From positions 117,104,002-117,168,001 of the forward strand of contig CM071571.1 in the NCBI GenBank assembly GCA_036426205.1: a stretch of DNA of 64,000 nucleotides. Direction: 5' to 3'. The stretch is from Ascaphus truei. Lineage: Eukaryota; Chordata; Amphibia; Anura; Ascaphidae. Position numbers and translations under genes: made by a program. The notes beneath the pieces were generated by a model. That model ran no database searches and was not told the DNA's origin. It worked only from the letters and a program-made list of their open reading frames with translations. Positions 9,050 to 54,850 of the stretch are shown in pieces (within the stretch, counting starts at the first letter, position 1; each line of letters opens with the position of its first letter).

Positions 9050-9890
9050 TGAAACGTGGTGGGATGAAACCCATGGCTGGGAAATCAATTTTTGAGGGTT
9101 ATTCCCTTTTTCAGGGAATGTCAACATTGTATTTTTTATGTTGTTATAAAGGAGACTCTCTATATTGTAAAAAAAGATGGCGGTGCACACTGCACAACTG
9201 CAGGACATGACTAGAGAGATTGAAAAATATAATATGCAATAATCATGCAACCAGCAGGTGAAAAATCCTCTTCCGCTTTTCTTACCAATAGGTACTTTAT
9301 CAAAGACTGCAACTGACTGCATGGAATATATCTCATACTTCCCACTTCTTACTGATTTATCTACAGCATTTATTTAGTTATATAATTATTTTTCCTTTTG
9401 AGCACTAACCTCGGGACATTGTCTATTACACACCTATTCCATATAGTCCCTTATTCCTTATGCTGAGAAGCCACGTCCTTTTGCTACAGTATATAAAATG
9501 TTAGTAAACAGAGCTAACCTCTTTTATAGCCCTCAGAAGGGGCATCATATTAAATAGGGGCAAAGTGAGAAGATGGGTAATTCACAGTTAACAGTCTATG
9601 CAGTTCAATTCTGGCAAATGGTCGTTTATGCCTAATTAACTGCACATTACCCCTCTTCCCACTGTATTGAATAGGGGCCTAAGTGCTATGGTGGCCTCGT
9701 TTATAAAAATAAAGCTTAGTTCTTTAGATACTTTATTTATTCTAAAGAATCATGGCACTGCAATTAGGATTCATTAGGGATTCGTTCTACATTGCAAACT
9801 GCAAGCCGTAAATGGCTTCTGCTGTATATCAGGTCTCTGGCAACAGACCAAATAGAACTCAGTTTTGATACCATCCAAGGAAAAATTCCA
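9050..9890. other. Unassigned sequence
   Basis: AT-rich, without a supported gene. Short frames only; no clear terminal repeats seen. Confidence 0.4.
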
Positions 9891-10179
9891 TTAACGTCCG
9901 ATGAGGAAGAGGTTACAATACATTATAGGCTAAAGCTGGCAAATTCCAGGCATTATTGAAATCCCTGCTCTCTGATTGGTTAAAATTCCAGGCATTATCC
10001 AATCAGTAATGGCCTGGAGTTTTTGGCAGCTTGCCAAGTTTTTCAGCCAATCAGCTTTCAGGTTTCATTCACAAAGAGTGAAATTTGCACTTAGACAGGG
10101 GAGGTGATTGGACAGAAGGCACTGACTCCTCCCCCACCCTGTCTGCAGAGAGCTCCGCACAGGAGAGTGAAGGGAAAGG

Positions 10180-10690
10180 TTTGTGTGTCTGCTGAGTGTG
10201 TTTTGTGAGTGTAAGGGGGCAGCAGAGTCTTGTTGGTGTGTTTCTGCTGTGTGTGTTTTGTTCTTGTAGAGGGGGGTTGCAGTGTGTGTGGCTGCAGTAT
10301 GTGTTTTGTGGGTGGCGGAGGGGTGCAGAGTGTTTTGTTGGTGTGCATCTGCAGTGTGTGGGTTTACAGGGGGCTGTAGTGGATGAAGAGGGGGGGCTGC
10401 TGGTGTGTGTTTTGTGGATGTAGAGGTAGCAGAGTCTGTTTTGTTAGTGTTTGTGTGTCTGCAGTGTGTGTTTTGTAGGTGCAGAGTGGTGGCTGCTGTG
10501 TTTTGTGAGTGTAGAGGGTGGAGGAGGGCTGCAGTATGTTTTGTGGGTGTAGAGGAGGGGGGCTGCACAGTGTGTAGGGGGGACTGCAGAGTGTGTGTTT
10601 GTGTATATAGGAGGGTTGCAGAGTGTGTGTTTGTGTGTATAGAGGTGGGGCTGCAGTGTGTGTGTGTGTGTGTGTGGGGTGGGGGGGTCT
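10180..10690. repeat. G/T-rich degenerate minisatellite
   Basis: Roughly 30-40 bp units with the recurring words GTGTGTTTTGTGGGTG, TAGAGG and GGGGGCTGCAGTGTG. Thr/His- or Cys/Val-rich frames over this stretch are repeat artefacts. Confidence 0.8.
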
Positions 10691-10837
10691 GTGTATATGT
10701 ACAATTTACTTTTAATAAACTTGCAGTAAAAGCATAAAAATGTAGACAATCATGCTGATAAAAATCAATATGACTACAAAAAATTATCTTTTTTATGAAA
10801 AATTTAAAATAAGCCTACATTTAGCCTATAATAGTAA

Positions 10838-10985
10838 TAATCCCCTCAGAACAGGGCATTACTGGCCAATAATGCCCTGGCTAGGTTAAAGTCCCTCGGC
10901 TTCGCCTCGGGCCTTCAACACTTCCAGCCAGAACAGGGCATTATTGACCAGTAATGCCCTGTTCTTCAGGGATTATTACTTAAAT
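10838..10985. repeat. Palindromic repeat, GAACAGGGCATTAYTGRCCA
   Basis: TAATAATCCC...GAACAGGGCATTACTGGCCA is mirrored by TGACCAGTAATGCCCTGTTC...GGGATTATTA about 90 bp on. CCTCGGCTTCGCCTCGG forms a small hairpin near the centre. Related CAGGCATTAT words occur at 9955-10015, so a larger foldback or MITE may span 9890-10985. Class not determined. Confidence 0.6.
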
Positions 10986-11269
10986 AATCAATGCTAGATC
11001 ATATAAAGCTAAGTTTCATCTAAATATTTTGGATAGGGTATATAATATCAGAAATGTATAGACATGTATAATGATAGGATTACATTAGTGAAGCTGGCAC
11101 TCTTATGGGAATTAAACAATAGATATGGTCAATAAATATCTAGATACTGAAATATTTAATGTGCATGTCCCATTGGAGTCCAGTCTCCACTATCTATCAA
11201 GATTTGTCATTACTGTGCACTTGTTTTCAGTTTGTTTTTAAGTTATCATATGTGCCCTTTAATTTTGAA

Positions 11270-12701
11270 AAAAAGAAAAGAGGTTGGGGCGCTCCCTATT
11301 TGTATAGGCTTGTGATGTTGCCTGTGTGGTAGTGTGTAACCAAAGAAAGGGTAGTGTATACTTGCCCTTGTTGTTTTCTGCAGCTGGACCAGTAGAGAAG
11401 ATAAAGCCCGGAATCTTCTTGTAGTTGCAGTGGAGGTGGAGGGTTGGTCAGCGCACGGGATTTTGCTCAAACGTAGAGATAAGAGGATAGGAAGATATGG
11501 AACACGGTATTAGTGTTTTAGTAATCGAACGGTACAATACAGCCAAAAGAACTTTGGAATTAAAAATGTATGAAAAATATATTTTTAAATAGCTTAAAAC
11601 TCTTAGGAATTAAAGAACCTTGGTAATTAAAAGTAAATATATGAAAAAATATATTCTAAAATAGCTTAAAAATCCTTAAATAAAAACCTTAAATAAAATT
11701 TAAATGGAATTGTGTGTTTTTTTTGTGAACAGAAGCAGAATATGTGCTATATGTGGATGACTAACAGGGTGTGTTTATATAGCCTGTTGTTGGTCTGAGG
11801 TAAAAAGGGGATAATGGGGCTGGTTAGCAGAGTTTAATGCGTAGTCTTTCCTTCACGGAATGCTGCTAAAAACAATAGCTTTCTCACCCTCCTGGTGGAA
11901 GCAGTACGTGAGTTGCTTCTCTCCCGGGGGCCCAAATAGGAAGAAAAGGGCCGAACTCGGTGAGTGATCAAAATAGAATTTATTAGGTACAGAAAACAAA
12001 GTCAAAATAACACTCATGGTACAGCTTTAAAACAGCCCAGCCTTTTTAATAAAGTCAAAATAACACTCACGGTACAGCTTTAAAACAGCCCAGCTGGGCT
12101 GTTTTAAAGCTGTACCGTGAGTGTTATTTTGACTTTGTTTTCTGTACCTAATAAATTCTATTTTGCTCACTCACCGAGTTCGGCCCTTTTCTTCCTATTT
12201 GGGCCCCCGGGAGAGAAGCAACTCACGTACTGCCTCCACCAGGAGGGTGAGAAAGCTATTGTTTTTAGCAGCATTCCGTGAAGGAAAGACTGCGCATTAA
12301 ACTCTGCTAACCAGCCCCATTATCCCCTTTTTACCTCAGACCAACAACAGGCTATATAAACACACCCTGTTAGTCATCCACATATAGCACATATTCTGCT
12401 TCTGTTCACAAAAAAAACACACAATTCCATTTAAATTTAATTTAAGGATTTTATTTAAGGATTTTAAAGCTATTTTTTCATATATTTTTTCATATATTTA
12501 CTTTTAATTACCAAGGTTCTTTAATTCCTAAGAGTTTTAAGCTATTTAAAAATATATTTTTCATACATTTTTAATTCCAAAGTTCTTTTGGCTGTATTGT
12601 ACCGTTCGATTACTAAAACACTAATACCGTGTTCCATATCTTCCTATCCTCTTATCTCTACGTTTGAGCAAAATCCCGTGCGCTGACCAACCCTCCACCT
12701 C
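11270..12701. mobile_element. Foldback retro-insertion with 15-bp target duplication
   Basis: CCCTTTAATTTTGAA flanks the element at 11255-11269 and 12702-12716. Inside, about 660 bp (11432-12093) is repeated almost perfectly in reverse complement (12094-12702), meeting at CAGCTG (12091-12096) with no spacer. The left arm is longer because a 54-bp segment with CGGTACAGCTTTAAAACAGC is tandemly doubled at about 12005-12090. A further 160 bp (11270-11431) with GGTTGGGGCGCTCCC occurs only on the left. The 15-bp duplication argues for target-primed integration rather than a cut-and-paste foldback transposon. Confidence 0.8.
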
Positions 12702-12965
12702 CCCTTTAATTTTGAAGCCTATACATAAATACTGCACTATACTTTTTATCTGACCTGTCTCAAATATCTGCACACTTCTGAAAAAATATGTTTTAATCAC
12801 AGTATGTTACTGTAATTATAAAATACCTACTTGGCAAGAACCCATGAGAGTAGTAATTTTACAACAAAATTTCATCTAAATTTTAAAGCCAAGGATATTG
12901 TTAGGAATAAATCACTTATTGAGATGAATACTCTAGCATTCACCCTGTCCAGGTTGAGAAACAAC

Positions 12966-35520: not shown

Positions 35521-36100
35521 AAATATAGCTGTATGCTCATCTGCATGTCTTAGGCAGGTCTGCAACCCCACCTTTCCCCATTATCACCCAACATACAGCA
35601 CTTCCACTGCAGCAAGGGATTCTGGGAAATGACATGCAAATGAGCACACAGTGTCACTTTTTGCCTCAATAACCATTTTTAACATGGTTCCCTATAGGCT
35701 TAAGCTTGCTGCATGGTCACAGCTTTGAGCACAGCCAGGGTTAAGGTGCATACCCAGAAAACCACCCACAGACAGCTGTTTCGACCTTGATGGGTCTCAT
35801 CAGTGTGGGGTTGATTTTACTGGGAATGCAAGAGAGGCTATGGGATAGGCTAAACCATAATACTGAGTTAAGTTATGGTGAGTAAAAAAAGTGACAAAAC
35901 CCCTCCACAGGAAAGCAAATATGCAAATATAGCTGTATGCTCATCTGCATGTCTTAGGCAGGTCTGCAACCCCACCTTTCCCCATTATCAACCAACATAC
36001 AGCACTTCCACTGCAGCAAGGGATTCTGGGAAATGACATGCAAATGAGCACACAGTGTCACTTTTTGCCTCAATAACCATTTTTAACATGGTTCCCTATA
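35521..36100 (-). repeat. 404-bp-period direct repeat carrying a hammerhead ribozyme
   Basis: Two 176-bp direct copies, 35521-35696 and 35925-36100, differ at about one base by eye (TTATCACCCA versus TTATCAACCA). They flank a 228-bp spacer with the ribozyme at 35765-35809, so this is about 1.4 units of a 404-bp tandem monomer. Landmarks: GCATGTCTTAGGCAGGTCTG, CCACTGCAGCAAGGGATTCT and GACATGCAAATGAGCACACA. A diverged single copy of the 176-bp part lies at 50163-50303. No reading frame. Confidence 0.85.
35765..35809 (-). ncRNA. Canonical type I hammerhead ribozyme
   Basis: Minus-strand order: stem I strand CCCACA (35809-35804), core CUGAUGA, stem II GACC/GGUC with loop CAUCAA, core GAA, stem III AC/GU closed by AGCU, cleavage base C of GUC, and stem I partner UGUGGG (35770-35765). 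Every conserved core base is present and both long stems are fully paired. A two-pair stem III is typical of animal and PLE-associated hammerheads, which often act as dimers. Self-cleavage immediately 3' of the GUC is predicted. Confidence 0.88.
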
Positions 36101-36860
36101 TATATATATATAAAAATGTCTTTATGATTTGGGCTGGTAAATCGCTGGGCTAACCACGCAGTTAAAGAGAACTGGATCACAAGTGTATATATACTCCAGA
36201 GTGGAGCGGATTTTGTTTGCTGATTTACATGTTTGCTGTGTTTAAAGCAACAGGCGCAATAAAGCCTTATTTTAATTTCACCTTAAAACAGTCCCCATTG
36301 CATACCTCTGAACACGTCTCTTACACGCCCCTTTTTGTTTTTTTTGTGTGCGTGGATTTGCCCCGCTGATCACAGGAGATCAGGAGTGGCAAGGATAATC
36401 ACATTCACTTAGAAGAGAGAAGGAATTCAGGGACAGCGCGCACTGTATTTCTTTAATGTTACACAAGCCCTGATTTAGCTGTGTTTAGTGCATCTGGCCC
36501 TTTGTGAGAAACTTCTGAATCACCAGTAGGAAAATACTCCATATGATAAGAAATAACATGGAAAGTATGATCTTTAAGCAGGTCAATAAATTCATGGAAA
36601 CTGTAGATTACAATTAAATGTATAACTTACTAAAGCAATATATCTTATATTGCTATACTAAAGCAGTTAAACTTTTCCATTGCAACTATAAAAACTATTT
36701 TAATGTTTGACAACTTGTGATATCACAGGTGTTAATGTAAAATGTTAATTCGCTGCTTCAGACTGTTCATATACACAACAACACACACACACACACACTG
36801 AAAAATGTTCAATATGGCTTTGCATCTTGTGGCATATATATATATATATATATATATATA

Positions 36861-37016
36861 CAGTGTTCGACAAACCTATACATTTGCTCGCCCCGGGCGA
36901 GTGGATTTAACATCGTGGCGAGCTCCTATTGGCCCAAGCAGCACACGTTTGGTACTAGGTGGCGAGTATATTTTTTTGTGTGGCGAGTAGGTTTTTTGGT
37001 GATTTGTCGACCACTG
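36861..37016. mobile_element. 156-bp TA-flanked MITE, copy 1
   Basis: Ends CAGTGTTCGACAAA and (reverse) CAGTGGTCGACAAATCACC sit in TATATA on both sides, as for Tc1/mariner-type MITEs. Second copy 46471-46626 has the opposite orientation and the same length. CTCGCC/GGCGAG words recur inside. Confidence 0.75.
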
Positions 37017-37066
<50 letters not shown>

Positions 37067-40700: not shown

Positions 40701-40711
40701 TATCACTTGGT

Positions 40712-40799
40712 GACCTCATCAACTATTTTGGCCTTAGATATCCTCGTGGATGATGCATCATCCACGAGGATATCTAAGGCCAAAATAGTTGATGAGGTC
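40712..40799. repeat. Perfect 88-bp palindrome
   Basis: 44 bp (40712-40755, beginning GACCTCATCAACTATTTTGG) followed directly by its exact reverse complement (40756-40799), with no spacer at TGATGCATCA. The right arm runs on into L1-like sequence, so it looks like a snap-back at a truncated retroelement 5' end. Confidence 0.95.
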
Positions 40800-41412
40800 G
40801 CCTTTAACTTAAAATGTCTAAAACTGAGCTTCTCGCAGCAGTATGGAAACTTAACGTGATTCCTTCCATCCCCAAGTTTCGGAACAAGATTTGGTTTATC
40901 TGCCAGATGGAAAAGTTAACGAGTCTAGTTAATGACACTGGCATCAATAATCTAAATATCTGGCTACCCTGGTTGGCCCAAACAGATATACCCGGGGTGG
41001 AACGGGCCACAATTTGGCATTGATAGCACTAGATGCATTCTCCTTTGGCAGGTCCAGCCTATATTTCATCTTGTTATTAAAATCATCAGGGAATTGGCAA
41101 ACAGGTCATAGAAGTTCCTTGACAACAGGTGTATGTACATGGGCTCAAATAAGTAGGTCTTAGTGATTCTAGCTGAAAAAGCACCCTCCGAGATCCGCTT
41201 TCACCTCCCCGAGAAGACATACCTCCCCCAACCCTATATCCTCCCTCCCTTATGTCTCTCCCCACACTCCCCCGTCATCCAGCGGTCAGTTATATATCTC
41301 CGGAGACGACGGTAGATATCAAGATACCGAAAGATGGGTGCTGTCTAAGTTAGTCTCGTCTTGTGTTGTCCTGTCGTCATCCTACATACACTGTATTAAT
41401 TTGTAAGACTAT
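40800..41412 (+). pseudogene. L1-like LINE 3' end, split by the Harbinger-like element
   Basis: The frame 40814-41023 (KTELLAAVWKLNVIPSIPKF, WFICQMEKLTSLV, WLPWLAQT) resembles the extreme C-terminus of an L1 ORF2, ending at TGA 41021. AT-rich 3' sequence follows and appears to continue beyond the 11-kb element at 52423-52525, where CAATAAAAATTACAAG and an A-rich tail end it. LINE class is moderately sure. Confidence 0.5.
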
Positions 41413-42126
41413 GGGCCTCATGCAGTAAGCGGCGATAAGGCTTTTTTCGCCATTTATGCGCCAAAATTGGGTTTCAGATTCAGTAAGCGCCGATAAGTGT
41501 TCAAAATCGGCATTTTTTATTGACGAAAAAAAATTATCGGCATTCGGCTGCCGATAAGCCTCTTTTCGGCATGTATCGCCAGTTTTTTTCATCGGCTGTA
41601 TTCAAGTAGCCCAGATCAGCTTATCGTTGCTGATCGGCACTCAAAAATGGAGATTTCATTGGGAATTCGTCCCGCCAACTAAAGTTGGCAAGTTGGAGGG
41701 GAGAACGATCGGCAAGGTTGCCAGAACGGCACTTAGAAAAAAAACCTCAGCTCTACATCAATGAGTCAATGGAGCGGGGACGTATAACATTATACTAGTG
41801 TTTACGTTGTATTGCTCAGAATACAAATGTGCTTAGCATTACAGTGTGGAGGGCATTCATTTCATCGTGTCACCCCTTAAGTTTATTATTTGCATAACAT
41901 TGTACTTTTAGATGTTATCATCATTTGTGTGTCATATTACTCATCATGTTATGATGTGTATAGGGAAAATCCTATACTCAACTCTTAAAGGAACAGGTCA
42001 CATCATATCCAACATGTTACTTAAGTGTGCTTCAATTTATTATATGATGTTACACATTTCACACATATAACACATGCAGCGTATAGTAATGTTGCTATAC
42101 ATGACACAATGCTTTCAATGTGTAAG

Positions 42127-42415
42127 GCTAAGGCCCCGGTCACGCCGCTGTAATGCGCGCCCGCGCTTTTGGCGGTTCATTCAGCCGATTCCCCGGTCTG
42201 CAGCTCACTGCAGGAGGAGAGACCGGGGGGCGTGGCGGAGGAGTGACGGGAGCGCGGCCATGACGTCACCCGGCAGGTTCGCCCTCATTGGCTGAACCGC
42301 CGGGGGGCGTGCCTAATCGCTCGACGCGAGTCCTGCTCTCAATTCTATTGAGAGCAGGAGTAGCTCTCGCGCGAGCGCTGCGGCCCCCCCTCGCAGCGGG
42401 CCCGGCGCCATTGCA
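42127..42415. mobile_element. CpG-rich MITE-like insertion
   Basis: GC-rich block in AT-rich surroundings, starting AAGGCTAAGGCCCCGGTCAC, with a 12-bp hairpin TCCTGCTCTCAA/TTGAGAGCAGGA at about 42331-42359. The start resembles the AAGGCTGCG MITEs at 16158 and 44079. The right end is unclear. Confidence 0.4.
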
Positions 42416-42429
42416 GAGGGAAATATGTG

Positions 42430-44070
42430 TTTTCAGTATAGTGTAAGTGGGTTTTTCTACACTTGGTGGTTAATGTGAATTGTTGAAGAAAAACTTTAGG
42501 GACATTACATTACAATTAATTTAGCAAACTTTACTCAATCCATTCCTGTAATATAGGGGTGGGTGGAGAGAAGGGGATAAACCGTGTTCAAATTTATATT
42601 ATGGAGGATAACATCCACGGATGCACATGAGTGATTTTTACACTCAAAGCATGGTTGCCTGTAAACACAACAATGTGTTTACAACAATACATTATTTACA
42701 TTACAATGTATGTGATTAGTTCTTCTATCAATGCATCTTCATGTTCTTTATAACATTGTCACATGTGTATGTGTAAGTCACACATGGGTGTTGATTTGAC
42801 ATACATGTCACGTGTTAAAAAGTGAATACCAAGTAAAATGTAAATTATTTCTATCTGAGACTTTTCTAACTTCATTCAACACAATTACAATGTTGTTAAT
42901 ATAATTTTAATGTCATTCACGTAAGGTAATCATTATTATCATGATACTTGAGTATAATGTCAACATTACAACGTCAATTACCTTGACATTTGCATAGGCA
43001 CACATTACAGCAGCACTGTGTGTGTGTGTGTGTGTGGCACTTTTTGTGTCATGCATGTTTTCCCACAAAACATAACAACAATTCACATACTAATGTTGAT
43101 TGTTTCATCACACTCACTTTGTTCTGTCTGTGTTGAACGTTTCATAAAAACACTAAACTATAGTTAGTCATAAATATAAAATATACACACTAATGTTAAT
43201 GTGTTCAGGTTGTGTAATTAATATTCAATAGCTCATGAATGTTAGGTTAGCATTACAACTTCTGTGAAATATAAATTGTCACATGAAAACAATGTTTATA
43301 TGACCTACCTATTGTTATTGTGTAGTTTCACATACAATGTATGGTAGTTGTTATGTAGCATGTACATTATGTCACAAGTCACACGTGACATTATACAATG
43401 TAGTACACAAATGTGTTGGCCGAGTGAGAAAGTTGTTTGCATATTTAACAGACCAACACATATCATGTTAGTAGAAGATATAAACAAAATTATAAAACTA
43501 CTAACTTCAGTGCTTAGAAACATCATAATGTTAATTAAGTGCATACTAAATATAGGCCTAAGCGGATACAATTATGTCTTCATAGTTAATCAGCGCAACA
43601 GGCACTGAAAGCATTGTAACATATGTATTATAATAGGATTTTTTTCGTCGTCAGAATCATCTAATATAACGAGTATATCTTCTGAAATCATACATTGATC
43701 ACATGTGTTCATCCGCGACATCTGTGAAATAGAGCAAACACATAATGGTCAAATATGGCACATTTATATATGTATGTGCATGACAACGCGTAACACATCT
43801 CTATATGAGTCTGTATATTCACGCATAACTAACGTATATGTTTAAAGTTCAAGGATCAAACCACAGATACTGAACTGTCATTTTGATAATGGCTTTGCTG
43901 GCATTACTACGGATATGATATTTCCGGTGCCTGTATAGATAATAATGTGCGCGCACAACTTCAGTTGCACGTGCACTTAACCATTGTGTGGACTAAGTGT
44001 TAGCGCATGCGCGAAACAATGTGTACGCTGTGCGTTGAATACATGTCCCTCCATGGTGTTGCTAGCAGTA
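42430..44070. other. Non-coding interior of the Harbinger-like element
   Basis: ATGTG/CACAT-rich, with a TG run at 43018-43037. No coding frame resembling a transposase on either strand. Confidence 0.6.
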
Positions 44071-44078
44071 AGCATATA

Positions 44079-44378
44079 AGGCTGCGGTCCCAGTAATGTC
44101 TGTGACACGAGCGGCCGGCGGGGTGGGCGGCGCGTGTCACAGCGCTAACCGCGATCTGCGTTCTGTGAGGAGAGGAGAATCTTGCGACGGGAGGGGGTGT
44201 GGTCGGGTATTCGCTAAGAGTCAACGAGATTGTAATGAGTTGTCAAAAACCCTGCCGCACGGCGCGCCTGCACCTTCTGCGTCACGGTGCGTAGTGGGCA
44301 CAGCCCCATTGAGGGGCGGTGCTTACACGCACAGTGCATGCCGCCCCGTGCGCACAGGCTGTACTGGGACCGCAGCCT
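44079..44378. mobile_element. 300-bp MITE with perfect 17-bp ends
   Basis: AGGCTGCGGTCCCAGTA (44079-44095) is exactly inverted as TACTGGGACCGCAGCCT (44362-44378). CpG-rich, non-coding. The target duplication is not clear (flanks ATATA and AATGG). Confidence 0.8.
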
Positions 44379-45069
44379 AATGGTTGGAAGTAATGCTATG
44401 GAAGCGAAACTAATTCACTTAGACACACGTACTGATATTACTTTTTGTAACGGACGTATGTACACGCAAATAACGGGCGATCAGCCAATGAGCGATCAAA
44501 ATACGTGTGACGTCATGTGAAGGCACCGTGAAATGCACGCAAACACTCCTCCCACTGAGTTAACATTGCCCGCCAGCGCTGTGCACGCACATAAACACTG
44601 ATGCGCGCGCATGACACAGAGCACTGATCCTAACAATAAGCAACGGTCACAGCCAATACGCTTTCACGTGCGCACATCGTTTGGGGGCGGGGCTTGCTTC
44701 CGTAAACCTTTTTAAGGACGCCTTGGATCATGACAAGTGTCCCACGTCATATGTGGCCGACCCTTTAGTTTTTACTATGTTGCATGCTAAACAATAAGGT
44801 GTGTGTGTTACAGTAAGTGTAACATGTAGAAATTATACTTTAAAAGAGTTTAGAGTAGGTTTTGTGAGTCCGTCAACAATGTGTCTTAATGCTTCGTCAT
44901 GTAGTATATTCTTATAGGAAATAATGTGTTTGTGCACGCTACATGTAAGGCTGTCTGCAATGTTACGCTGTATCCACGCATTTGGCTATGAAATGGTGGA
45001 TCTTACAAATGTAGACATTTACTCTGAGTAAACGCATAACGATTATTGTATTTACCATTGTTGTAGAAT

Positions 45070-45252
45070 TCAAAACATTGACAGCAACTGGTCGCTCCAC
45101 AAAGCCACAGCAGTCTCATCCATGCTTGAGGCAACCATTGAATCCTGAATCACACACATCTCCATGAGGCGCTCATATGGATCTGCACTGTCTTCTTCAA
45201 ACAAGACATCCGGAGGTACGTACAGTTCTTGGTTGTTTTCCCATCCACATAG
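45070..45252 (-). pseudogene. Acidic C-terminal tail of the forkhead ORF beyond a premature stop
   Basis: In frame with the forkhead ORF after TAA at 45253-45255. Sixty codons include ELYVPPDVLFEEDSADPYER, MCVIQDSM and WSDQLLSMF, ending in TGA. The maintained frame and acidic, hydrophobic-spaced composition look like a former activation domain; that role is inference. Confidence 0.6.
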
Positions 45253-45714
45253 TTATTGCCCATATAAGTTTGGAGACATATCATAGTTATGTGCATCTTG
45301 CATCTGGTCTTCATGAATGGAGGGTGCAGGTATTGCAGCAGGTATAGCAGCTGACGCGCCAGTCGTTGCGGCTCCATTGTAACTGTTATTAGGCAAAAAA
45401 ATGCTATTTAACATAACATATGTTCCATGTTCCATGGTAATTTTAAATGATGGGGCAATCTGCCAACATCCATATCGTTGGTCTAGGCGATCATGGACAC
45501 GCTCAAAACATGCATTTGCTGATAAAGTGAATCGTACTGAAGTTTTAAAATTAGATTCTCGGCACGCTTCTTTATAGTATGGATATTTGTTTTGAATCAA
45601 GTTATAGATGTGTGCAACGCTAGCTTTTTTTTCTTCAGTTGATTCTATTGCTTGTGAAATCATAAATTTATATGATTTTCGTGGATGCCTTTGCAATGTG
45701 GAAGCTTCTGCCAT
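45253..45714 (-). CDS. Divergent forkhead-domain protein within the Harbinger-like element
   Basis: A single-exon frame starting at ATG 45712-45714 gives 153 residues. Residues about 11-100 align along a whole forkhead winged helix. SYKFMISQAIEST matches the SYISLITMAIQ helix 1. VAHIYNLIQNKYPYYKEA matches LSEIYQWIMDLFPYY. FKTSVRFTLSANACFERV matches WQNSIRHNLSLNDCFVKV. YGCWQIAP matches GSYWTLDP. Recognition helix 3 is altered (RHN to RFT), so DNA preference may differ. After TAA 45253-45255 the same frame stays open 60 codons (LYVPPDVLFEE, then Glu/Asp/Met-rich) to TGA 45070-45072, so one nonsense change removed an acidic C-terminal tail. It lies 2 kb downstream of the Myb-like gene on the same strand. 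It would be a DNA-binding regulator if expressed. Confidence 0.8.
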   Translation of the reverse strand: MAEASTLQRHPRKSYKFMISQAIESTEEKKASVAHIYNLIQNKYPYYKEACRESNFKTSVRFTLSANACFERVHDRLDQRYGCWQIAPSFKITMEHGTYVMLNSIFLPNNSYNGAATTGASAAIPAAIPAPSIHEDQMQDAHNYDMSPNLYGQ

Positions 45715-46149
45715 TTCTGCTCTGTTGAAGTGATGAGTGTGTAAGTAGAGCGCATAAGTTTGTCTGCTGAATGTGAAAATAGTTACATGTTATCTTCGTG
45801 GTTTCTTCCAAGGTTAAAATACAAGCTCTATGTTGAACGCCTTCTTTTCCCCCCCCACTACAAATGTGAGAAAATAATTCAAACACATTCTTTGTGTAAG
45901 ATAGTAATTTCACTGTAAACGAAACTTATTTTTCATGTTCATGAACATGTGCAAAACAAGTTATCAATTGCAATTAAAACAAAAATGTGTGTGAAAGATT
46001 CAACAGTGATAGAATGAACAGATTACTGCTTACACTGACATATAGTGACCCACATACACACCTGTGTCTGTTTTTCTCTCTCTCAATTTTTGTGTGTCTG
46101 GTTATCTGTGTTTCTCTCTTACACTGTCTGTTACTGTCTCTTGAGACAT

Positions 46150-46470
46150 ATATATATATATATATATATATATGACACCTCTAGCCATAAAACACATCCA
46201 CACCGGGGGAAGGAACAGCACAGATAACATTCCAAGAGACACTGTTTTTAAGTAATCCTTGCTTCATTCATTGTAACATCGCCGGAAGAAGAGATCAGTG
46301 TATCTCGAAAGCTCGCACAAATAAAAGCATTTCGTTAGCCACAGAACGGTATCATCTATTTATTTTTTGATTATAGATATATCTATCTATCTATCTAGAT
46401 ATATATATATAGCTAGATAGATAGATAGATAGATAGATCTAATCTATCTATATATATATATATATATATA
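46150..46470. repeat. TA and GATA microsatellites around PLE 3' sequence
   Basis: (TA)n at 46149-46172, PLE-like 3' sequence to 46375, then TATC/GATA repeats (46377-46440) and (TA)n to 46470. Confidence 0.85.
46281..46375 (+). ncRNA. PLE 3' end with hammerhead-like fold
   Basis: CGGAAGA, then stem II GAGAU/AUCUC with loop CAGUGU, then GAAAGCUC, followed by AAATAAAAGCATTTCGTTAG and a TTTTTTGATTATA end. This is a different PLE terminal type from the GAAACGCGT ones. The core box is altered (CGG for CUG). Confidence 0.5.
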
Positions 46471-46626
46471 CAGTGGTAGACAAATCACCAAAAAATCTAC
46501 TCGCCGAACACAAAAATCTACTCGCCACCTAGAACCACACGTGTGCTGCTTGGGCCAATAGGAGCTCTCCACGATGTTAAATCCACTCGCCCGGGGCGTG
46601 CAAATGTATAGGTTTGTCGAACACTG
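46471..46626. mobile_element. 156-bp TA-flanked MITE, copy 2
   Basis: CAGTGGTAGACAAATCACC to (reverse) CAGTGTTCGACAAACC, in a TA tract. Opposite in orientation to 36861-37016. Confidence 0.75.
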
Positions 46627-46657
<31 letters not shown>

Positions 46658-47678
46658 ATGTGTTAAAATTTAACTATAGTGTGTGTGTGTGTATGTATAT
46701 GTATAAGTATAGATATGTATGTATATATGTGGATATGTGGATATATGTATAGATTTAAAGGCTTATATGGAAACAGGCCTTGTTATTTAGTTAATAAGTC
46801 ATGAAAGCGTATAACATTACTGGGTGAGTATGTTTGAGTGCCTATTAGAGTCAGCTGTGTATAAGTAGTAGTTAATAGCAAACAACGCCTCTTTAGAGCC
46901 ATGAAGGCCTGTACTGTTAAATAATCACATACATATGTAATTTAGTGGTAATCTAAATCCAGTGATGTGTGAAAGTAGGCCTTGTTTATAGCATAGTGAA
47001 AGTGTAATACAGGTGAGTGAAGTATTGTGTTCATAATATTATTGACATCATTTAAACAAGTGTCCTAACATATATATGTGATTAACACTAGGCCTGTTTT
47101 CTGACAACACTTTGAGATATATATATATATATATATTCTCACACACAATGTGCTCAAACACATATATCCATACACACTTCAGTAATATTAATACACACTA
47201 TCAGATGTTATTCTAACCACTACTCATACATGATGACATGCCAACATTATGAAGTATGAAAGAAGGTGAAGGTAAGTAATGTGTTACAGAGTGAAGACTC
47301 CTGAAAACATCTTTAAAATGTATGGTGTGATATAGATAGTTAATTAAATTTTGATGCCAATAATATTAGCATGCAATGACTATCTACATTACCTAACACA
47401 CACATACATACAATGTTTAACAGGTAAGTGAATGGCAGCTTATAGAATCATGGCAACTGTGTAATGTTGTACCATCAATCAAATTATTTATACCTAAATA
47501 TATTTTATAATTTAAGCATTAATTCACACACTGAACATTTCTAAACCTTCATGTATACAAGGACATACTTGAATGTTTTGAAGCATCAGGACTTAATCAT
47601 ACATACAGTATTCATTCAATTTTCTGCTTTAAACACCACCAGGCCAACAACAGATTTAGTGAATGTAATTATTTATTA

Positions 47679-48145
47679 TTATTTTTCCTTTTGAGACCTA
47701 GTCACAGGCCTGCTTGTTGCCTGTTGTGTTAGCCTTTTCCGTTTGGCAGCTACTTTGCCCTTCACTGTACGACTTGTACTCGCCTGTGACAGTTCAGGGC
47801 CACTGGTTGTGGGCTGTGACAGTTCAGGGCCAACGTGTTGTGGTTTTTTGACAGTTCATGGCCACTGCCTTGTGGTTTGTGACAGTTCAGGGCCACTGGT
47901 TGTGGGCTGTGCCAGTTCAGGGCCACTGGGTGTGGGTTGTGGCAGTGGTGAAGGAGTTGATACACATTGCACGACTGATGGTGGAGCCGTTTCCTGTTTA
48001 GATTTTTTAAACTTGCTCCAAAAACTGGTTATTAATAATTATTTGCCTAGGTTTCTTTTTCGTGTCTCAGTTGTAGGTGTCTGTTGCTGATTTTGACCAG
48101 ATGTAAGCGGTTCCATGTTGACAGGGACCTGCACAGAACTTGCAG
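47679..48145 (-). pseudogene. Frameshifted C-terminal extension of the Myb-like protein
   Basis: One base out of frame with the Myb-like stop at 48146, the minus strand reads VAASSVQVPVNMEPLTSGQN then ETRKRNLGK and a TAA. It continues in the same frame through a Pro/Thr/Ser/Glu repeat (PTTSGPELSQ) and a basic tail TVKGKVAAKRKRLTQQ, ending at TAA 47679-47681. A local out-of-frame repeat unit holds a TGA. It appears to be the ancestral C-terminus, now cut off by an indel and a stop. Confidence 0.7.
47786..47945 (-). repeat. 30-bp coding minisatellite (PTTSGPELSQ)
   Basis: About five units of GTGACAGTTCAGGGCCACTG plus GTTGTGGGCT on the plus strand. On the minus strand each unit encodes a ten-residue Pro/Thr/Ser/Gly/Glu/Leu module, part of the Myb-like C-terminal extension. 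Confidence 0.85.
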
Positions 48146-51100
48146 CTACTGTACGGTATCATTCAGAACTGGAGAATGAAGAAGTGATGACTCTGGAGAA
48201 AAAGTTTCACCATGTAAAGATCCATCCTCAGATGGGGTAAAGTGGAATAGTTGTTCTCTAGCAGTCATTATCAACTGATTAGCTTGGCTTAGATTATGAA
48301 CTATTGCTTGTAATGTCCTGTTTACATTTTGTATTTGTTTAGGAACTTGGATGAAGACTCTTTCTAGTTGTGACATTGGTGATATCGAAGTTTTCTGCTG
48401 TGATATCATCTTGTCCTGCTGTGATATCATCCTTTCCTGCTGTGATATCATCCTTTCAAGCACTGACATCATTTCTGAGTGGTGACGATTTTCTTCAACC
48501 ACGATTCTTTCTTCAGAAGCTGCAATAGCTGAGTATGTTTCACGAGCAGGAGCAGTTGATTGCTGTGTTACTGGTCGAGTGGGAACATGTTCATGCTGAC
48601 TTAATTGAATGTTTCCTTCATTGTCAACATCAGCTTCTAGAAATAAATGAAGACATTATGAACTGCCATTTAACTTATTTTGTCAATACAATGAGAGTTG
48701 TTCTCACAGTGTAACACATAACATGTTAGAACTTTTCTGTTGTGTCAAATTAAAATGTAGTTTGAAGTAACAATTATGTTTGGACTCAGTGTGAAAGAAG
48801 AATGAGTGAAAGGTTGTTGTAACCTCACAAATCATAGCTGATAGTTCATATCACACACAATACATGTTGACATTGTAAACTACATTTTCTATGACAAGAA
48901 CTGATGGGAAGTTCATTCCATGTGAAAGGCATTTAGCTAGCATGGCAACATAACATCTACAAAGGTACACATTAGATGTCATGCACCTCATACACTCACC
49001 TTCCATCGTTGACGAGGAGCTGGATGAAGCAGGTGATGAGATTTTTTCAGTGTGAGGTGACACATGAGGTCTGGGAGCAACTATATAAAAGATGAACATA
49101 ACATTTAGTTTGCCATGTGTACATAATTAACATAGAGTTTGTGTATTTGGAGTATTTATGTTAACATAACAACATCACTTAATGAAATGAAAAGATGTTT
49201 CTGCCAAGCTGTACATTATCCATTTAAATGTACATGTGTGACTAATGTGCAGTTGTTTTGTAAATACCATAGAACATAGTATGTTTATGACGTAATGGTT
49301 AGTAGAAACATTTTGACAATTGGACATACAATGCATATCTTGTGTAGTAAGATAAAAATAATAATGTACATCAATACATCACAGCAACGTTGACTCTGCT
49401 TATAATTCAGTATGTGATGGTGGAAATGGTAACCAAATTTGTATGGGATATGTGTGAACAATTAATAGAAGCAAGTGTAGCGTTCAATGTGGCTAACAAT
49501 GAACAACACATGAAGTGTGTCGGTCACAGATGGTAATGGTGTGATAATGTGCCTTTTCTATAATGTTCAAAGAACATATGAGTGAACCAATGACTTACGT
49601 ACGTTTTCATAGATAGTGGGCTGGTGGGTGACATTTTCCATAGAATTTACATTTCAAATGAATGTTATGAACTTCTGTGTAGCTTGGCAGCTTCTAAGAA
49701 CTGTAGTCCCTCCCCCAAGACATCATAGAACCCTGATTTAGTTTTAGTTGTAGCAGCTGTAAGGCGTGTCTAAAACATTGACCGTAACATGACCCTGTGA
49801 TGTGGCTTGGTGGCCAACCCCACCCCTTGTGTTCTCCTCTACGATGTGATTACATATTAATTGCAGCAGGATCCACACAGTGGTATATGAGCCAATTAAT
49901 AATCTGAAGTGAGCTACATATGAACAAAAATGAATAACATGTGCTACATGTTCCAAATTATGGCATGTGTATATGACATGAAGCAACAAAGGATGTTTAA
50001 TTACAAATCACTAAATGTGTGAGTACAATTTCTGTATGTTGGCATTTGAATGCACTTTCTGCCATGCAAGAGTTGATGAGGCAGTAATGTCATGTTTATA
50101 GGTGTTACATAGATTAACACTCAATTATGAATATATATTTATTTACATAAACAGTACATATTACTGTATGATAATTTGCATGTCTCAGACAGGTCTGCAA
50201 CCCTGTAGTTCCCTATCATCGTCCAGCATACAGGGTTTCCACTGCAGCAAGGGATTGTGGGATATGACATGCAAATGAGCACACAGTGCCATCATTTGCC
50301 ACCATATTAATTAATTGTGACCTTTTTGTAGGACAACTAGATATACATATACACTACCGACACACTTAATCACACTGCGGCCAGATCCGCAAGCCGGGAG
50401 ATTTCCCGGCTTGCTAGTGGCCGCCCCTCGGCATGCCGCGCCCCTCGGCACGCCCCTCGGCATGCCGCGCCCCCTGCACGCGCTTCCAGGGGCTCCCCGA
50501 GGGAGCCCTGGTGTCCCGCGATCGCGGGACAGCGGCAGGGGGTTCCGGGGGACCCGGCGGACCCGGCAGCGGTAGGGAGAGCGCCCCGATCGGAGGGCGC
50601 TCTTCCGCTGCTTCGGCGCGCGCCCGTCACTCTCGGGCGTGCGCCAGGCTACTGCTGCGGCCAAGAACGGGCAAATGCTCGAATAAACTTGGCCGCAGCA
50701 GTAAATAGATAGATAGATATATAGATATAGGGAGAGAGACATATATACAGATATATATGTTAGTATGCTTATATTGTGAAGAAAGTATAAGTAGCAGCGG
50801 AAATATAGATAAGAACTGTTACCTACGACACGCCTAGTACAGTAACATTTTTCACCTTGTGGAAATGAAGCAGAATAAATTCCAATATCCCTGTCCCCGA
50901 GCAAACCCTCCACGACCACGGGAAGAAATTTGTCCCGCATCTGCTCCTCCAATGGTGTTAATATGAGAGCTTGTGCAGGCGGCCCACCTCCAGTGCCAGC
51001 AACATGCATCCGCTGTGCTTGTATTTTTTTCTTTAAGTTTGCCCTGATATCGTCAAATCTTTTCCGACAATTGTTCCGGTCCCTGACATGATTCCCACAT

Positions 51101-51924
51101 GCACACACAGCCAATGTTATTTGATTCCACATTTCTTTTCTTGCTGCTGAACTTGTCCGCCCTTGAAATACATACATCATATATGACGTAAATTAGTAAT
51201 ATAAAAACGAACAGTTTCCTAAACTGCTAACTGTTCCAAGAAATATGAAACATGCTGTTTTAGGTGTAATATGTGTACCACATGAGCATTTACGTGTAAA
51301 CATACAAATGTAAGGAAGCTTGCATGAATATTGTATGAACTTGAGGACAATTGTACGACTGATTGTTATTGTCGTTGTCAAGCATAAGGCAAATATGTGT
51401 GTAACAATTATTTAGAATTTTAAGATATTAGGGAATAATATTTAGATATTAAGACACCTCACATGACCTAGGATAACATGTGTTTGAAGAATGAATGCAA
51501 AGATAGACTTACCTAGTAAGTGGCCATACAGATAGTCATAGTGCTCCAGAATCCCCGTGACAAGAGCTGTATTTTCCTGTTCATTGAACCGAGGATTACG
51601 TGGCCGCTCCACACGTTTCTTGCGAACACGTGCAGGCCCAGAGTTTGAGTGCTGCTGACTGGAATCTCCTTCTTCCAATGGAAGAGACTCCAAAAGCGGC
51701 CCACCAGCAAGCACCCCACCACCAGACACACCAGCAGCACCAGCAACAGAGCCACTAGCAGCACTCACACTCCCAGCAACAGCACTCACACTCGCACTCC
51801 CAACAACAGCACTCGCACTCGCAGCAATATCACTCCACTGAACCCTACGTTCACTCCGACGCGTACTTGCACGACTAGCACTACCACTCACACCAGCATC
51901 ACTCTTCCCACGCCTTGCGGCCAT
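48146..51924 (-). CDS. Harbinger Myb/SANT-like DNA-binding protein, four exons
   Basis: In the Harbinger family this protein binds the transposase and the transposon ends and is needed for nuclear import. Exons: 51924-51513, 51161-50856, 49080-49000 and 48636-48146. Junctions are consensus (CTAG|GTAAGT, TTTCAAG|GG, CAAG|GTGAAA, TATATAG|TT, GAAG|GTGAGT, TTTCTAG|AA). All introns are phase 1, and the joined frame is open for 429 codons from ATG 51922-51924. Domains: Ala/Ser/Val-rich N-terminus; Myb/SANT-like fold across exons 1-2 (NPRFNEQENTALVTGI, RKEMWNQITLAV, CRKRFDDIRANLKKK); the family signature GTGGGPP..LTPLEEQM; and a C-terminal coiled coil with RMISQQE repeats. The stop at 48146 follows a probable frameshift (see 47679-48145). 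The second intron holds later insertions. Confidence 0.85.
50163..50303. repeat. Diverged copy of the hammerhead-associated 176-bp repeat
   Basis: GCATGTCTCAGACAGGTCTG, CCACTGCAGCAAGGGATTGT and GACATGCAAATGAGCACACA recur in the order seen at 35521-35696. The ribozyme-bearing spacer is absent. It sits in the second intron of the Myb-like gene. Confidence 0.75.
50320..50702. mobile_element. CpG-rich insertion with hairpins in the Myb-like intron
   Basis: Abrupt GC-rich block. GCAAGCCGGGA/TCCCGGCTTGC forms an 11-bp hairpin at 50389-50414, and ACTGCTGCGGCCAAG/CTTGGCCGCAGCAGT a 15-bp hairpin near 50655-50702. GGCATGCCGCGCCCC is repeated at 50430-50475. The minus-strand frame running through it into the Myb exon is read-through, not protein. 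Class unknown. Confidence 0.5.
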
Positions 51925-52529
51925 ACCTCTAGCACTCACAAAAAAACAGAAAACAAATGTAAAGCCAATCGCACTGAACACTAACAAATATAAAACAAGA
52001 CAAAGATGTAAACAAAACAACACAGGACAAACGTCTCACAATACACAACAAATCTCTCAGTCAATATGTACTTTGTAAATCGGGCAGCTCTGTGTGTGTG
52101 TCTCCCTCTCTCTCTCACTCCCAACAACACAGAGAATGAATAACAATACACGGTGCCTTTAAATAGGCCGCTCAATCCAATACATTGTTGCTTCGGCAGA
52201 TTCAGCAAGAAGTTTGCTTGGCGGACCTAACAGCACCCCGCCATGCACGCCGATACGCCTGTGTGTGATCGGCAAATCATCGCCAGAATCGGCGCTAATG
52301 TTTTCGGCTGCATTCGGAATGGATTTGGCACGTATTGCATACGGAGAGGGAAAATCGCCAGAATCATGCCGATAAGGTACCCTTGGCGATCGCACTTTTT
52401 CGCCGCTTACTGCATAAAGCCCTAAGTCATATGTACTTCCCTTGATTGGGTTTATGCCACGTTATGATTTGTACCTGTACATTACTTCAATAAAAATTAC
52501 AAGTTACAAAAAAAACAAAAAACTGAGCT

Positions 52530-52995: not shown

Positions 52996-54850
52996 TGTCA
53001 AGACTTTTGGTGCAGGTAGGACCTCAGTGGCCGGAACAGTTGGAGCATGTGACCATGGGGGTGGGTTTCCTGGAGGGGTGCTGCCCTGGGGTATATAACA
53101 TTGCTCCCTGCTAAATTTAGTGTTCTATGTGGAGTTCCAGATAGTATCTCCTTAGGGAGTGGGTGAATACCCTTTACCCCACCGGGGGTAAGGGAGCTGA
53201 GGATAGATTCTTGGGGTCTCAAGCTCCTTGGGCTGATTCCAGGGATAGGTCCTGCGAGCTAGGCTCTGATCCAGAAAAATACATAAGTGCAACCAAATGA
53301 CTTGTACCGGCGCTAATAAACACCTTAATATAATTAAGTGCAATAAACAAATACAATACTTAAAAGGGATGTGTATCCCAGAAGAACACGCTTCTCCACC
53401 TTCCAAGGAATATGTACAGATTCCTTACATGAGAAGACTTGATCCACAGGGGGGGGGAAGGGAGCGGTATTCTCAGGAACACACCAAGAAATAAAAAATA
53501 TAAACACAGTGATAGTGCAATATGCTAAGACAAGCGGAGAATGGGTGAATCTTGGCTCTAATGCAATTCCTACTTACAGCATGTAAGATTTAAACAGGCA
53601 GTGGTCTGACTCTGTCAGGATGATGTCGGTGTGGGGTATACACAGAGAGGGGAACTTGATAGTAGTTAACTTCATGCGGGATAATCTCAAGGTGTAACAG
53701 AACGCGTTTCCTTGATAAAAGGCAGGGTTCAGTGGCAGGCAACAGGCAAAGATCATCAGGGTCCAGGCAAGGGCCGGAAGCCGTCTAAGTCTCTCTGATC
53801 CAGGCACACACACTGGACCGCTACAAAGAGCAGGCAGCTGTGAAGAGAAACTCTGCATAAGGACTTTCAGTCTCCTACCCCAGCTGAAGTCTCAGTTCCT
53901 GCTCCTCTGCCCTGTTCTTGCCTTCCTGCTTCCGGCCCTTGCCTGTACCCTGATGATCTTTGCCTGCTGCCTGCCACTGAACCCTGCCTTTTATCAAGGA
54001 AACGCGTTGAGCCAAGCCTTTAGTCCACCAGAGCCCTGCTGCAAGTGAAGACGTGTGAGGTATCTGCTGCCTATACCAGCGATCGGCTGAGATTCATCTC
54101 CCCCGCTCTCCACCGGTTGTCATCCCCCGTGCCGCCGGAAGTGACGTCAGACGCCATACCGCGACGGGGAGGTGGAAGCGAAGGGAAGCTATCCAGCCAG
54201 CACACCATCGCCAAAAAGCCCTCTACTGTCTCACGAAACTGCTACGGGAATACCTTTCAAGTACTTATTCTGTTACACCTTGAGATTATCCCGCATGAAG
54301 TTAACTACTATCAAGTTCCCCTCTCTGTGTATACCCCACACCGACATCATCCTGACAGAGTCAGACCACTGCCTGTTTAAATCTTACATGCTGTAAGTAG
54401 GCATTGCATTAGAGCCAAGATTCACCCATTCTCCGCTTGTCTTAACATATTGCACTATCACTGTGTTTATATTTTTTATTTCTTGGTGTGTTCCTGAGAA
54501 TACCGCTCCCTTCCCCCCCCCCCCTGTGGATCAAGTCTTCCCAGAAAAATACATGCAAGCTGCGAAAGATAGGAGAGAGAACTGCCTATGATTGTACCTT
54601 TCTTGCATGGGAGATGAGATGACCATATGCCACAATAAAGATCGAGTTGTACCATCACTGCTGTGTGTTCTATGGAGGAGAGAATTGCCTGTGGGGGTTA
54701 CCCCTGTTTCTAATAGGGTCCCTGAGGATGGAGGCGCTGCACGGAGAGAGGAATGCTGAAAACCTGTTCTTTTGCTACAGTACTCCCTAAACCTCAACAG
54801 CGGACACTCAGCTTTCTGTACTGTGATGGTGAGGGGGTAACCAGGCTCTT
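52996..54850 (+). repeat. LTR-like repeat with TATA box, interrupted
   Basis: Starts near TGTCAAGACTTTTGGTGCAG (52996), with a promoter-like GGGGTATATAACATTGCTCC at about 53090. After the insertion 53285-54540 it continues with CACAATAAAGATCG (54635), ATGGAGGCGCTGCAC and CACTCAGCTTTCTGTACTG. Related to 25640-26125. The 3' boundary was not found. Confidence 0.5.
53285..54540. mobile_element. Head-to-head PLE terminal-repeat insertion with 14-bp target duplication
   Basis: CCAGAAAAATACAT flanks it at 53271-53284 and 54541-54554. Inside, 53437-53785 (GAAGGGAGCGGTATTCTCAG, GTTAACTTCATGCGGGATAA, CGCGTTTCCTTGATAAAAGG) is mirrored on the right between 53935 and 54535. About 270 bp, 54006-54275, occurs only on the right. 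TATCAAGGAAACGCGTTG, a degenerate PLE hammerhead end, is present in both orientations (53702-53719 and 53993-54010). GGCGCTAATAAACACC at the left is PLE-like. No RT coding. Confidence 0.75.

What the first reader, a model, noticed from the sequence alone, without database searches (positions are those of the whole stretch)
41413..52422. Forkhead-domain gene carried inside a Harbinger-like transposon that lacks a visible transposase
Seen: inverted ends matching 18/20, a Myb/SANT-like four-exon gene and, on the same strand, a single-exon frame with an almost full-length forkhead winged helix and an acidic tail. Known: Harbinger elements normally pair the Myb-like protein with a DDE transposase. 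Inference: a captured FOX gene, or a FOX-derived transposon protein, has taken the second slot. Its altered recognition helix (RHN to RFT) would let it bind transposon ends or host promoters differently. A forkhead gene as mobile cargo would be a route for spreading transcription factors, and I know of no described family like it.
Basis: partly seen in the sequence, partly recalled or inferred. Interest (0 to 1): 0.88.

Follow-up and report, generated by a model that had tools for sequence, protein, structure and literature searches.

The report
Frog transposon carrying a forkhead gene
In a frog genome, a large family of jumping genes carries, besides its two usual genes, a third gene for a forkhead-type DNA-binding protein, a class of regulators that in animals is normally known from host genes.

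Summary
In detail: 41413-52422 is a transposon with matching inverted ends, a Myb/SANT gene and a real forkhead (FOX) frame (Pfam E=1.4e-19), and no transposase in six frames. The reading "FOX takes the transposase's place" is wrong. Of ten other FOX copies fetched from the same genome (frog, Ascaphus truei or a close relative), nine carry DDE_Tnp_4 transposase sequence 2.5-4.7 kb beyond FOX on the opposite strand. Across capped genome lists, 55 FOX-transposase pairs lie within 12 kb, all on opposite strands, 53 with the transposase downstream; about 0.5 expected by chance. The family is therefore a three-gene PIF/Harbinger: Myb, FOX, transposase. The window copy is a deletion derivative: 2.55 kb with the transposase is gone, its Myb gene is damaged, its FOX frame has an early stop. 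FOX is high-copy (150 scored of 11,530 loose candidates), has domain dN/dS 0.15-0.33 in 9 of 10 subfamily comparisons, and a nearly invariant, non-canonical recognition helix. It is 28-33% identical to the host FOX domains compared, so not a recent capture. Other divergent forkhead families occur in this genome. I found no published forkhead gene in Harbinger. Its role is inferred: the element's own activator or pioneer-like factor.

The parts
41413..52422 (.). Whole element: non-autonomous (transposase-deleted) copy of a three-gene PIF/Harbinger-like transposon, 11,010 bp
   Evidence: Inverted ends; aligns in blocks, mostly at 85-95%, to two longer copies c04 and c05
41413..41435 (.). Left terminal inverted repeat (3' end in the sense of Myb/FOX); flanking triplet ATA in that sense
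52400..52422 (.). Right terminal inverted repeat (5' end in the sense of Myb/FOX); flanking triplet TTA; 1 of 3 bases differs from the other side, while relatives c04 (TTA/TTA) and c05 (TAT/TAT) match
41413..41712 (.). Left subterminal zone rich in ATCGGC/CGATAA motifs, presumed protein-binding sites
   Evidence: ATCGGC 10 times in the two 300-bp ends together, 1 time in the 10.4 kb between
52123..52422 (.). Right subterminal zone with the same motifs
51513..51924 (-). Myb gene exon 1
   Evidence: Splice junctions read from sequence; matches P0002
50856..51161 (-). Myb gene exon 2, Myb/SANT-like domain
   Evidence: PF13873 E=4.9e-7; junction as in P0001
49000..49080 (-). Myb gene exon 3
47679..48636 (-). 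Myb gene exon 4, damaged (frameshift near 48150 and two in-frame stops after it) relative to P0001
45253..45714 (-). Forkhead (FOX) open frame, 153 aa: winged-helix domain (residues 10-91) and start of the linker
   Evidence: PF00250 E=1.4e-19; 25 of 25 aligned copies hit Forkhead
45070..45252 (-). C-terminal part of the FOX protein in relatives (acidic block), here behind a premature TAA at 45250-45252
   Evidence: Same frame open in relatives such as L002 and L004
42129..42419 (.). Deletion junction: 2,549 bp present in c04 (element positions 9254-11802), including both transposase exons, is absent; a 291-bp GC-rich stretch sits here, 82 bp of which match an insertion in c05 at 79%
44078..44379 (.). 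Nested insertion absent from c04, with its own inverted ends (44076-44104 / 44353-44381)
46173..46740 (.). Insertion / AT-repeat tract absent from c04; contains a repeat 95% identical to 36838-37038
50352..50704 (.). GC-rich insertion in the Myb intron, absent from c04

Best explanation
Shown: this is a deletion derivative of a high-copy PIF/Harbinger-like family with three genes, Myb and FOX on one strand and a DDE transposase converging from the other. The FOX gene belongs to the element: it sits at a fixed place, has no boundaries of its own, is present in several subfamilies, and its forkhead domain kept its frame and a nearly invariant altered recognition helix while subfamilies diverged. 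Inferred: transposase and Myb protein bind the subterminal ATCGGC repeats and move the element, as in known Harbingers. The FOX protein, a winged helix with an acidic C-terminal block, is the element's own DNA-binding regulator. It most likely binds element DNA and activates or opens its chromatin for transcription in the germ line, in the manner of a pioneer or anti-silencing factor. The window copy can no longer make transposase and could move only if proteins came from other copies. Anatomy and membership I hold at about 0.95; the regulatory role at about 0.45; the number below is for the whole.
For: Forkhead domain in the window and in 25 of 25 aligned copies, chosen for open frames. High copy: 150 scored of 11,530 loose candidates, worst E=2.6e-65; subfamily C query, 150 scored of 12,212, all 88-100% over nearly the whole 212 aa. 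Transposase sequence beside FOX in 9 of 10 fetched copies (distances), DDE_Tnp_4 E=1.9e-17 and 3.5e-18 on the two exons of c04. Genome-wide pairing: 227 FOX and 150 transposase loci give 41 pairs within 12 kb, 41/41 opposite strands, 39 downstream with median 4251 bp, expected 0.29; with 139 of the 150 listed DDE_Tnp_4 rows added (274 loci), 55 pairs, 55/55 opposite, 53 downstream, expected 0.53. Domain dN/dS between subfamily consensuses 0.15-0.33 in 9 of 10 pairs, Fisher p 6e-3 to 4e-6, against 0.41-0.64 within subfamilies over 160 codons. On the same nine copies the ratio is 0.316 for the FOX domain and 0.565 for transposase exon 2. Helix 3 residues N55 F56 K57 S59 V60 R61 L64 invariant in the 25 aligned copies, T58 F62 T63 in at least 90%.
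Against: No data on expression, binding or transposition. dN/dS is uneven: in codons 92-160 dS is only 0-0.10 while dN is 0.03-0.17, so the low ratio in the domain owes much to a high dS there, which I cannot explain; over all 160 codons the consensus ratios are 0.25-0.66. The acidic C-terminal block shows few synonymous changes and no clear constraint in most comparisons. The copies read were biased to open frames (19 of the 20 were picked from rows without stops). No protein of this type turned up in the protein collection, although 81 Myb models of the frog did, so strong expression is not indicated. c03 and the window lack the transposase; in c02 and c16 it is partial, and in c09 and c21 exon 2 has stops.
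Confidence: 0.6

Rival explanations
1. The FOX protein is part of the transposition machinery itself: it binds the element's ends or subterminal repeats together with Myb and transposase, rather than acting on transcription.
For: Known Harbingers need a second element-encoded protein besides the transposase (PMC2836001, start of abstract in the listing); FOX stays linked to the transposase and has a nearly invariant altered recognition helix. Dense subterminal motifs offer sites.
Against: The Myb protein already fills the known role; nothing ties FOX to the end motifs.
Confidence: 0.25
2. FOX is cargo that acts on host genes, for instance to favour germ cells or element-friendly expression.
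For: A forkhead protein is a transcription regulator by nature; high copy number gives dose.
Against: The two canonical base-reading positions Asn and His (roles recalled) are Thr and Phe, so host forkhead sites are unlikely targets; no gene model was found in the protein collection.
Confidence: 0.12
3. FOX is a captured host gene that merely hitch-hikes and has no function.
For: The window copy and many others carry stops: 47 of 150 rows and 63 of 150 (counted by eye); of 50 copies read, 27 have their first stop at codon 205 or later.
Against: Five subfamily consensuses with open frames that differ in length by whole codons only, and domain dN/dS 0.15-0.33 in 9 of 10 comparisons; identity to five host FOX domains only 28-33%.
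Confidence: 0.04
4. One reading: FOX replaced the transposase as second protein of the element.
For: The window copy alone looks so.
Against: Nine of ten other copies have FOX and transposase together, and the window has a matching deletion; genome-wide pairing.
Confidence: 0.01

Closest known systems
PIF/Harbinger DNA transposons (PHIS superfamily)
   Same: DDE_Tnp_4 transposase, separate Myb/SANT protein, short inverted ends, matching 3-bp flanks in two copies.
   Different: Most described families have two ORFs, transposase plus Myb/SANT or, in ISL2EU, plus YqaJ; Spy has one (PMC4482050 and PMC9179366, passages read). Here a third gene encodes a forkhead protein, and the three elements with both ends are 11.0-12.5 kb.
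Forkhead (FOX) transcription factors of animals
   Same: Winged-helix domain over nearly its whole length; low-confidence model with FOX-like helix order.
   Different: Encoded by a transposon; 28-33% identical to the five FOX domains compared; in helix 3 Asn, His and Asn are Thr, Phe and Thr; two residues more between helices 2 and 3 than FOXC2 or FOXA3.
Harbinger expansion in the newt Pleurodeles waltl
   Same: Amphibian Harbinger expansion with Myb-like gene (PMC5741667, passages).
   Different: No forkhead gene is mentioned in the passages seen.
VANDAL elements with the anti-silencing protein VANC, and En/Spm or MuDR accessory proteins (recalled, no call)
   Same: A DNA transposon with an extra DNA-binding protein that acts on the element's own expression would work alike.
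   Different: Other superfamilies, plant hosts, unrelated protein folds; analogy only.

Membership tests
PIF/Harbinger | DDE_Tnp_4-type transposase encoded by the element | tested here: met
   Met in the family: c04 exons PF13359 E=1.9e-17 and 3.5e-18, transposase sequence in 9 of 10 fetched copies. Not in the window copy itself, which has the deletion.
PIF/Harbinger | Second ORF with Myb/SANT domain | tested here: met
   PF13873 in window and c04.
PIF/Harbinger | Terminal inverted repeats | tested here: met
   both ends found in 3 of 11 sequences (window, c04, c05), one end or part of it in 6, none in 2.
PIF/Harbinger | 3-bp TWA target-site duplication | tested here: inconclusive
   c04 TTA/TTA fits; c05 TAT/TAT is a duplication but not TWA; window TTA/ATA differs at one base.
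PIF/Harbinger | Coding capacity of two ORFs (usual, not strictly defining) | tested here: not met
   Three genes: Myb, FOX, transposase.
Forkhead domain proteins | Significant forkhead profile match over the domain | tested here: met
   PF00250 70.4 bits, profile 2-84 of 88; 25 of 25 aligned copies.
Forkhead domain proteins | Canonical DNA-reading residues Asn and His in helix 3 (roles recalled) | tested here: not met
   Thr58 and Phe62 in their place, Arg61 kept.
Forkhead domain proteins | Binding of a forkhead DNA site | not testable with these tools
   Needs a binding assay.
Recent capture of a host FOX gene | Close similarity to one host FOX gene | tested here: not met
   Protein searches: none at E<=0.001 among 164 candidates, best fish FOXO3 E=0.18, 31%; PDB profile scores spread over FOXC, A, N, G, O without a clear class. 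The genome's own FOX genes could not be fetched, so a close host relative in this frog is not fully excluded.

The most novel reading that the evidence does not exclude
Transposons in this frog have long carried their own lineage of forkhead proteins, separate from the animal FOX genes and comprising several divergent families with perhaps thousands of copies. These act as transposon-made pioneer or activator factors that keep the elements expressible, and form a reservoir from which new DNA-binding regulators could pass to the host.
Probability: 0.4. Interest if true: 0.93.

Novelty: new variant of a known kind. Interest (0 to 1): 0.85.

Why it matters
Forkhead proteins are developmental regulators and some open closed chromatin (recalled). 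A DNA transposon that keeps such a gene under apparent constraint, beside transposase and Myb, suggests that elements can carry their own chromatin-acting factor in animals, and gives a direct, countable source of mobile transcription-factor genes. Many listed copies have no stop within the match (103 of 150 and 87 of 150 rows in two overlapping capped lists, counted by eye), so expression, binding and excision can be tested in cell culture.

Tried and rejected
Protein searches for relatives: FOX frame, 164 candidates, none at E<=0.001; longer read-through scored on the FOX region, best fish FOXO3 at E=0.18; viral and prokaryote contigs, none confirmed. A nested insertion with its own boundaries was rejected because c04 and c05 align through the FOX region. 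The structure model has mean pLDDT 44.6, so its fold search (no hit at E<=0.001; the 50 hits listed of 134 are forkhead structures or complexes) is supporting only. Attempt to place the other forkhead families in Harbinger: of 129 such loci (the 21 best-scoring rows left out as host genes; one kept row, C6:82250083, could also be a host gene), 1 pair with the DDE_Tnp_4 list (expected 0.15) and 0 with the transposase list (expected 0.16), 1 with the Myb list (expected 0.16). Window-family FOX against the Myb list: 1 pair of 227 loci, expected 0.28. The top-150 caps make these uninformative, so that question is open. The tree separating transposon from host FOX (97/98) rests on 12 short sequences with 5 host domains, two long branches, and no FOX gene of this frog.

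Counts that are limited: genome lists show at most about 150 scored loci of thousands of loose candidates. The 10 long copies were chosen from the 30 best FOX matches, and 19 of the 20 short ones from rows without stops, so they cannot show how many elements lack FOX and lean to open frames. Subfamily labels were set by motifs I chose. From the 150 listed DDE_Tnp_4 rows I left out 11 second-exon rows of loci already in the list; more rows existed that the tool did not list. Two of the 55 pairs have the transposase upstream, one of them 9.9 kb off beside another FOX copy.
Full report
What was claimed and checked. The finding says that 41413-52422 is a Harbinger-like transposon with matching ends, a Myb/SANT gene and a forkhead gene, and no transposase. 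All of this is in the sequence. The ends match 18 of 20 and are found as a 35-nt inverted pair at 83%; the shared 16-mer occurs exactly at both ends, with a third 2-mismatch match, against a chance mean of 0.21. The frame 45253-45714(-) hits the Pfam Forkhead profile at E=1.4e-19 over profile positions 2-84 of 88, and exon 2 of the Myb gene hits PF13873 at E=4.9e-7. A scan of all six frames of the element found no transposase at E<=0.1. The ends carry a dense array of ATCGGC motifs, 10 in 600 bp against 1 in the 10.4 kb between them.

Which genome. All 81 significant relatives of the Myb protein are named Ascaphus truei, the best 93% identical over 68% of the query; only the 7,998 candidates sharing most words were scored. 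The held assembly (2.82 Gb, longest contig seen 330.6 Mb) differs from the one behind those models (contigs up to 555.8 Mb), so the species is A. truei or a close relative. The same collection gave no protein like the FOX frame.

The FOX gene is a high-copy transposon gene. A genome search with the 153-aa frame scored 150 loci out of 11,530 loose candidates; the weakest had E=2.6e-65 and 69% identity, and 103 of the 150 show no stop within the match (counted by eye). A copy of another subfamily as query gave 150 of 12,212 candidates at 88-100%, 87 without a stop (counted by eye); the lists overlap. Fifty copies were read, the window's own among them, with a lean to open frames: 40 are open over the first 150 codons and 27 have their first stop at codon 205 or later. 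The protein is about 213 aa, begins MAEAS in most, and ends in an acidic block. The window copy has a TAA at 45250-45252 where relatives read on. I sorted the copies into five subfamilies, whose consensuses differ in length only by whole codons.

The transposase is a third gene. Ten copies were fetched with 8.5 kb before and about 9 kb after the FOX start, chosen from the 30 best FOX matches. Both ends were recognised in two of them, c04 (12.5 kb, flanks TTA/TTA) and c05 (12.0 kb, flanks TAT/TAT), and in the window (TTA/ATA). Nine of the ten have sequence of a two-exon transposase on the opposite strand downstream of FOX, 2.5-4.7 kb beyond its end; c03 and the window do not. It is partial in c02 and c16, and exon 2 has stops in c09 and c21. 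The c04 exons hit DDE_Tnp_4 at E=1.9e-17 and 3.5e-18. Against c04 the window aligns to c04 position 9253, then resumes at 11803; the missing 2.55 kb holds the transposase, and a 291-bp GC-rich stretch sits at 42129-42419. The FOX region lies inside a block that aligns on both sides to c04 and c05, so FOX is not a later insertion.

Genome-wide linkage. The 227 FOX loci from two searches and 150 transposase loci form 41 pairs within 12 kb; all 41 are on opposite strands, 39 have the transposase downstream, median distance 4251 bp, and 0.29 pairs are expected by chance. With 139 of the 150 listed DDE_Tnp_4 rows added there are 274 transposase loci and 55 pairs, 55 opposite, 53 downstream, involving 55 of 227 FOX loci, 0.53 expected. 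The lists are the top 150 of thousands each, so the unpaired loci say nothing about absence.

Constraint. Between subfamily consensuses the forkhead domain has dN/dS 0.15-0.33 in 9 of 10 comparisons (Fisher p from 6e-3 to 4e-6); the tenth, B against B2, is 0.50 and not significant. Over 160 codons the consensus ratios are 0.25-0.66, and within subfamilies 0.41-0.64. On nine copies with both genes, the ratio is 0.316 for the FOX domain, 0.456 for 152 FOX codons and 0.565 for transposase exon 2. Against a simple reading: dS is far higher in the domain (0.08-0.65) than in codons 92-160 (0-0.10), where dN is 0.03-0.17, and the C-terminal block shows few synonymous changes. Recombination among subfamilies or unequal mutation could cause this; I did not test it.

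What kind of forkhead. Twenty-five copies from all subfamilies, chosen for open frames, hit Forkhead, and the recognition helix is invariant or nearly so among them, yet it departs from the FOX norm: Asn, His and Asn are Thr, Phe and Thr, while Arg is kept. The roles of these residues are recalled. The domain is 28-33% identical to the five FOX domains compared, and profile scores do not single out a FOX class. A search of this genome with the Forkhead profile gave 150 scored of 12,894 candidates: 21 with 107-141 bits look like host genes, and the other 129, 73-94 bits, a number of them with open frames near 217-237 aa, look like further repeated families. Three short domains of these were read (L071-L073). 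They are 35-41% identical to the window domain, share the R-x-T-L pattern in helix 3, and join it apart from five host domains with support 97/98 in a small tree. A degraded relative of L071 lies beside c05. Whether those families are Harbingers is not shown.

How it most likely works. Shown are the gene set, its order, the linkage and the loss of the transposase in this copy. Inferred from Harbinger biology is that transposase and Myb protein move the element. That FOX acts on the element's own transcription or chromatin is my reading from fold, acidic tail and persistence; that it is part of the transposition complex is the main rival.

What is known. The PHIS survey describes two ORFs in most groups, with Myb/SANT or YqaJ as the second protein, and TWA target duplications for PIF/Harbinger; the word forkhead does not occur in it (PMC4482050, passages). 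The teleost Harbinger study likewise speaks of two ORFs and has no forkhead (PMC9179366, passages). Newt Harbingers carry a Myb-like gene (PMC5741667, passages). Literature searches combining forkhead or Fox genes with Harbinger or transposon terms returned 0, 4, 1, 1, 2 and 0 papers, none relevant by title; of these I looked into one, PMC9341512, where forkhead occurs only in a reference (passages). A search for third or additional ORFs listed 20 of 41 papers; of these PMC7998251 uses the terms for retrotransposons only (passages), and most of the others were not opened. The library is open-access only and repeat databases were not searched, so an unpublished or uncurated record is possible.

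Verdict. The window element is an ordinary broken copy, but the family it reveals, a Harbinger with a forkhead gene under apparent constraint and related mobile forkheads in the same genome, is unusual and, so far as I could find, undescribed.

Noticed in passing
35765-35809 (-): Hammerhead type I ribozyme, 35.9 bits against a gathering score of 34, E=2.7e-5.
   Followed up: no
11429-12705: Large palindrome: the stretch matches its own reverse complement at 96% over 1281 columns.
   Followed up: no
40709-40802: 94-bp near-perfect palindrome with no spacer, about 0.6 kb outside the element, arms 98% complementary.
   Followed up: no
53433-53702 and 54268-54540: Inverted repeat pair, 98% identical over 273 columns.
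   Followed up: no
L071, L072, L073; one search list: Further divergent forkhead sequences with open frames in the same genome, sharing R-x-T-L in helix 3; a search for copy number of the L071 type did not complete.
   Followed up: partly
L038 about 6728-7046 (-): Degraded forkhead relative of the L071 type (50% over 62 aa) about 1.5 kb beyond the end of element c05.
   Followed up: partly
P0026, P0038: Frog gene models named prenylcysteine oxidase 1 and destrin match the transposon Myb protein (P0038 also lists PF13873), so they are fused or misannotated with Harbinger pieces.
   Followed up: no
FOX codons 10-91 against 92-160: Synonymous divergence between subfamilies is several times higher in the forkhead domain than in the linker of the same gene; unexplained.
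   Followed up: no
G000:C5814:2642 (+) and 4250 (-): A forkhead locus of another family lies 1.6 kb from a Myb_DNA-bind_5 locus on the opposite strand; one pair, 0.16 expected.
   Followed up: no
element flanks of window, c03, c04: The bases outside the ends read GACT overlapping TTA, TAT or TAA on both sides of the window element and on one side of c03 and c04, hinting at a preferred target longer than 3 bp.
   Followed up: no
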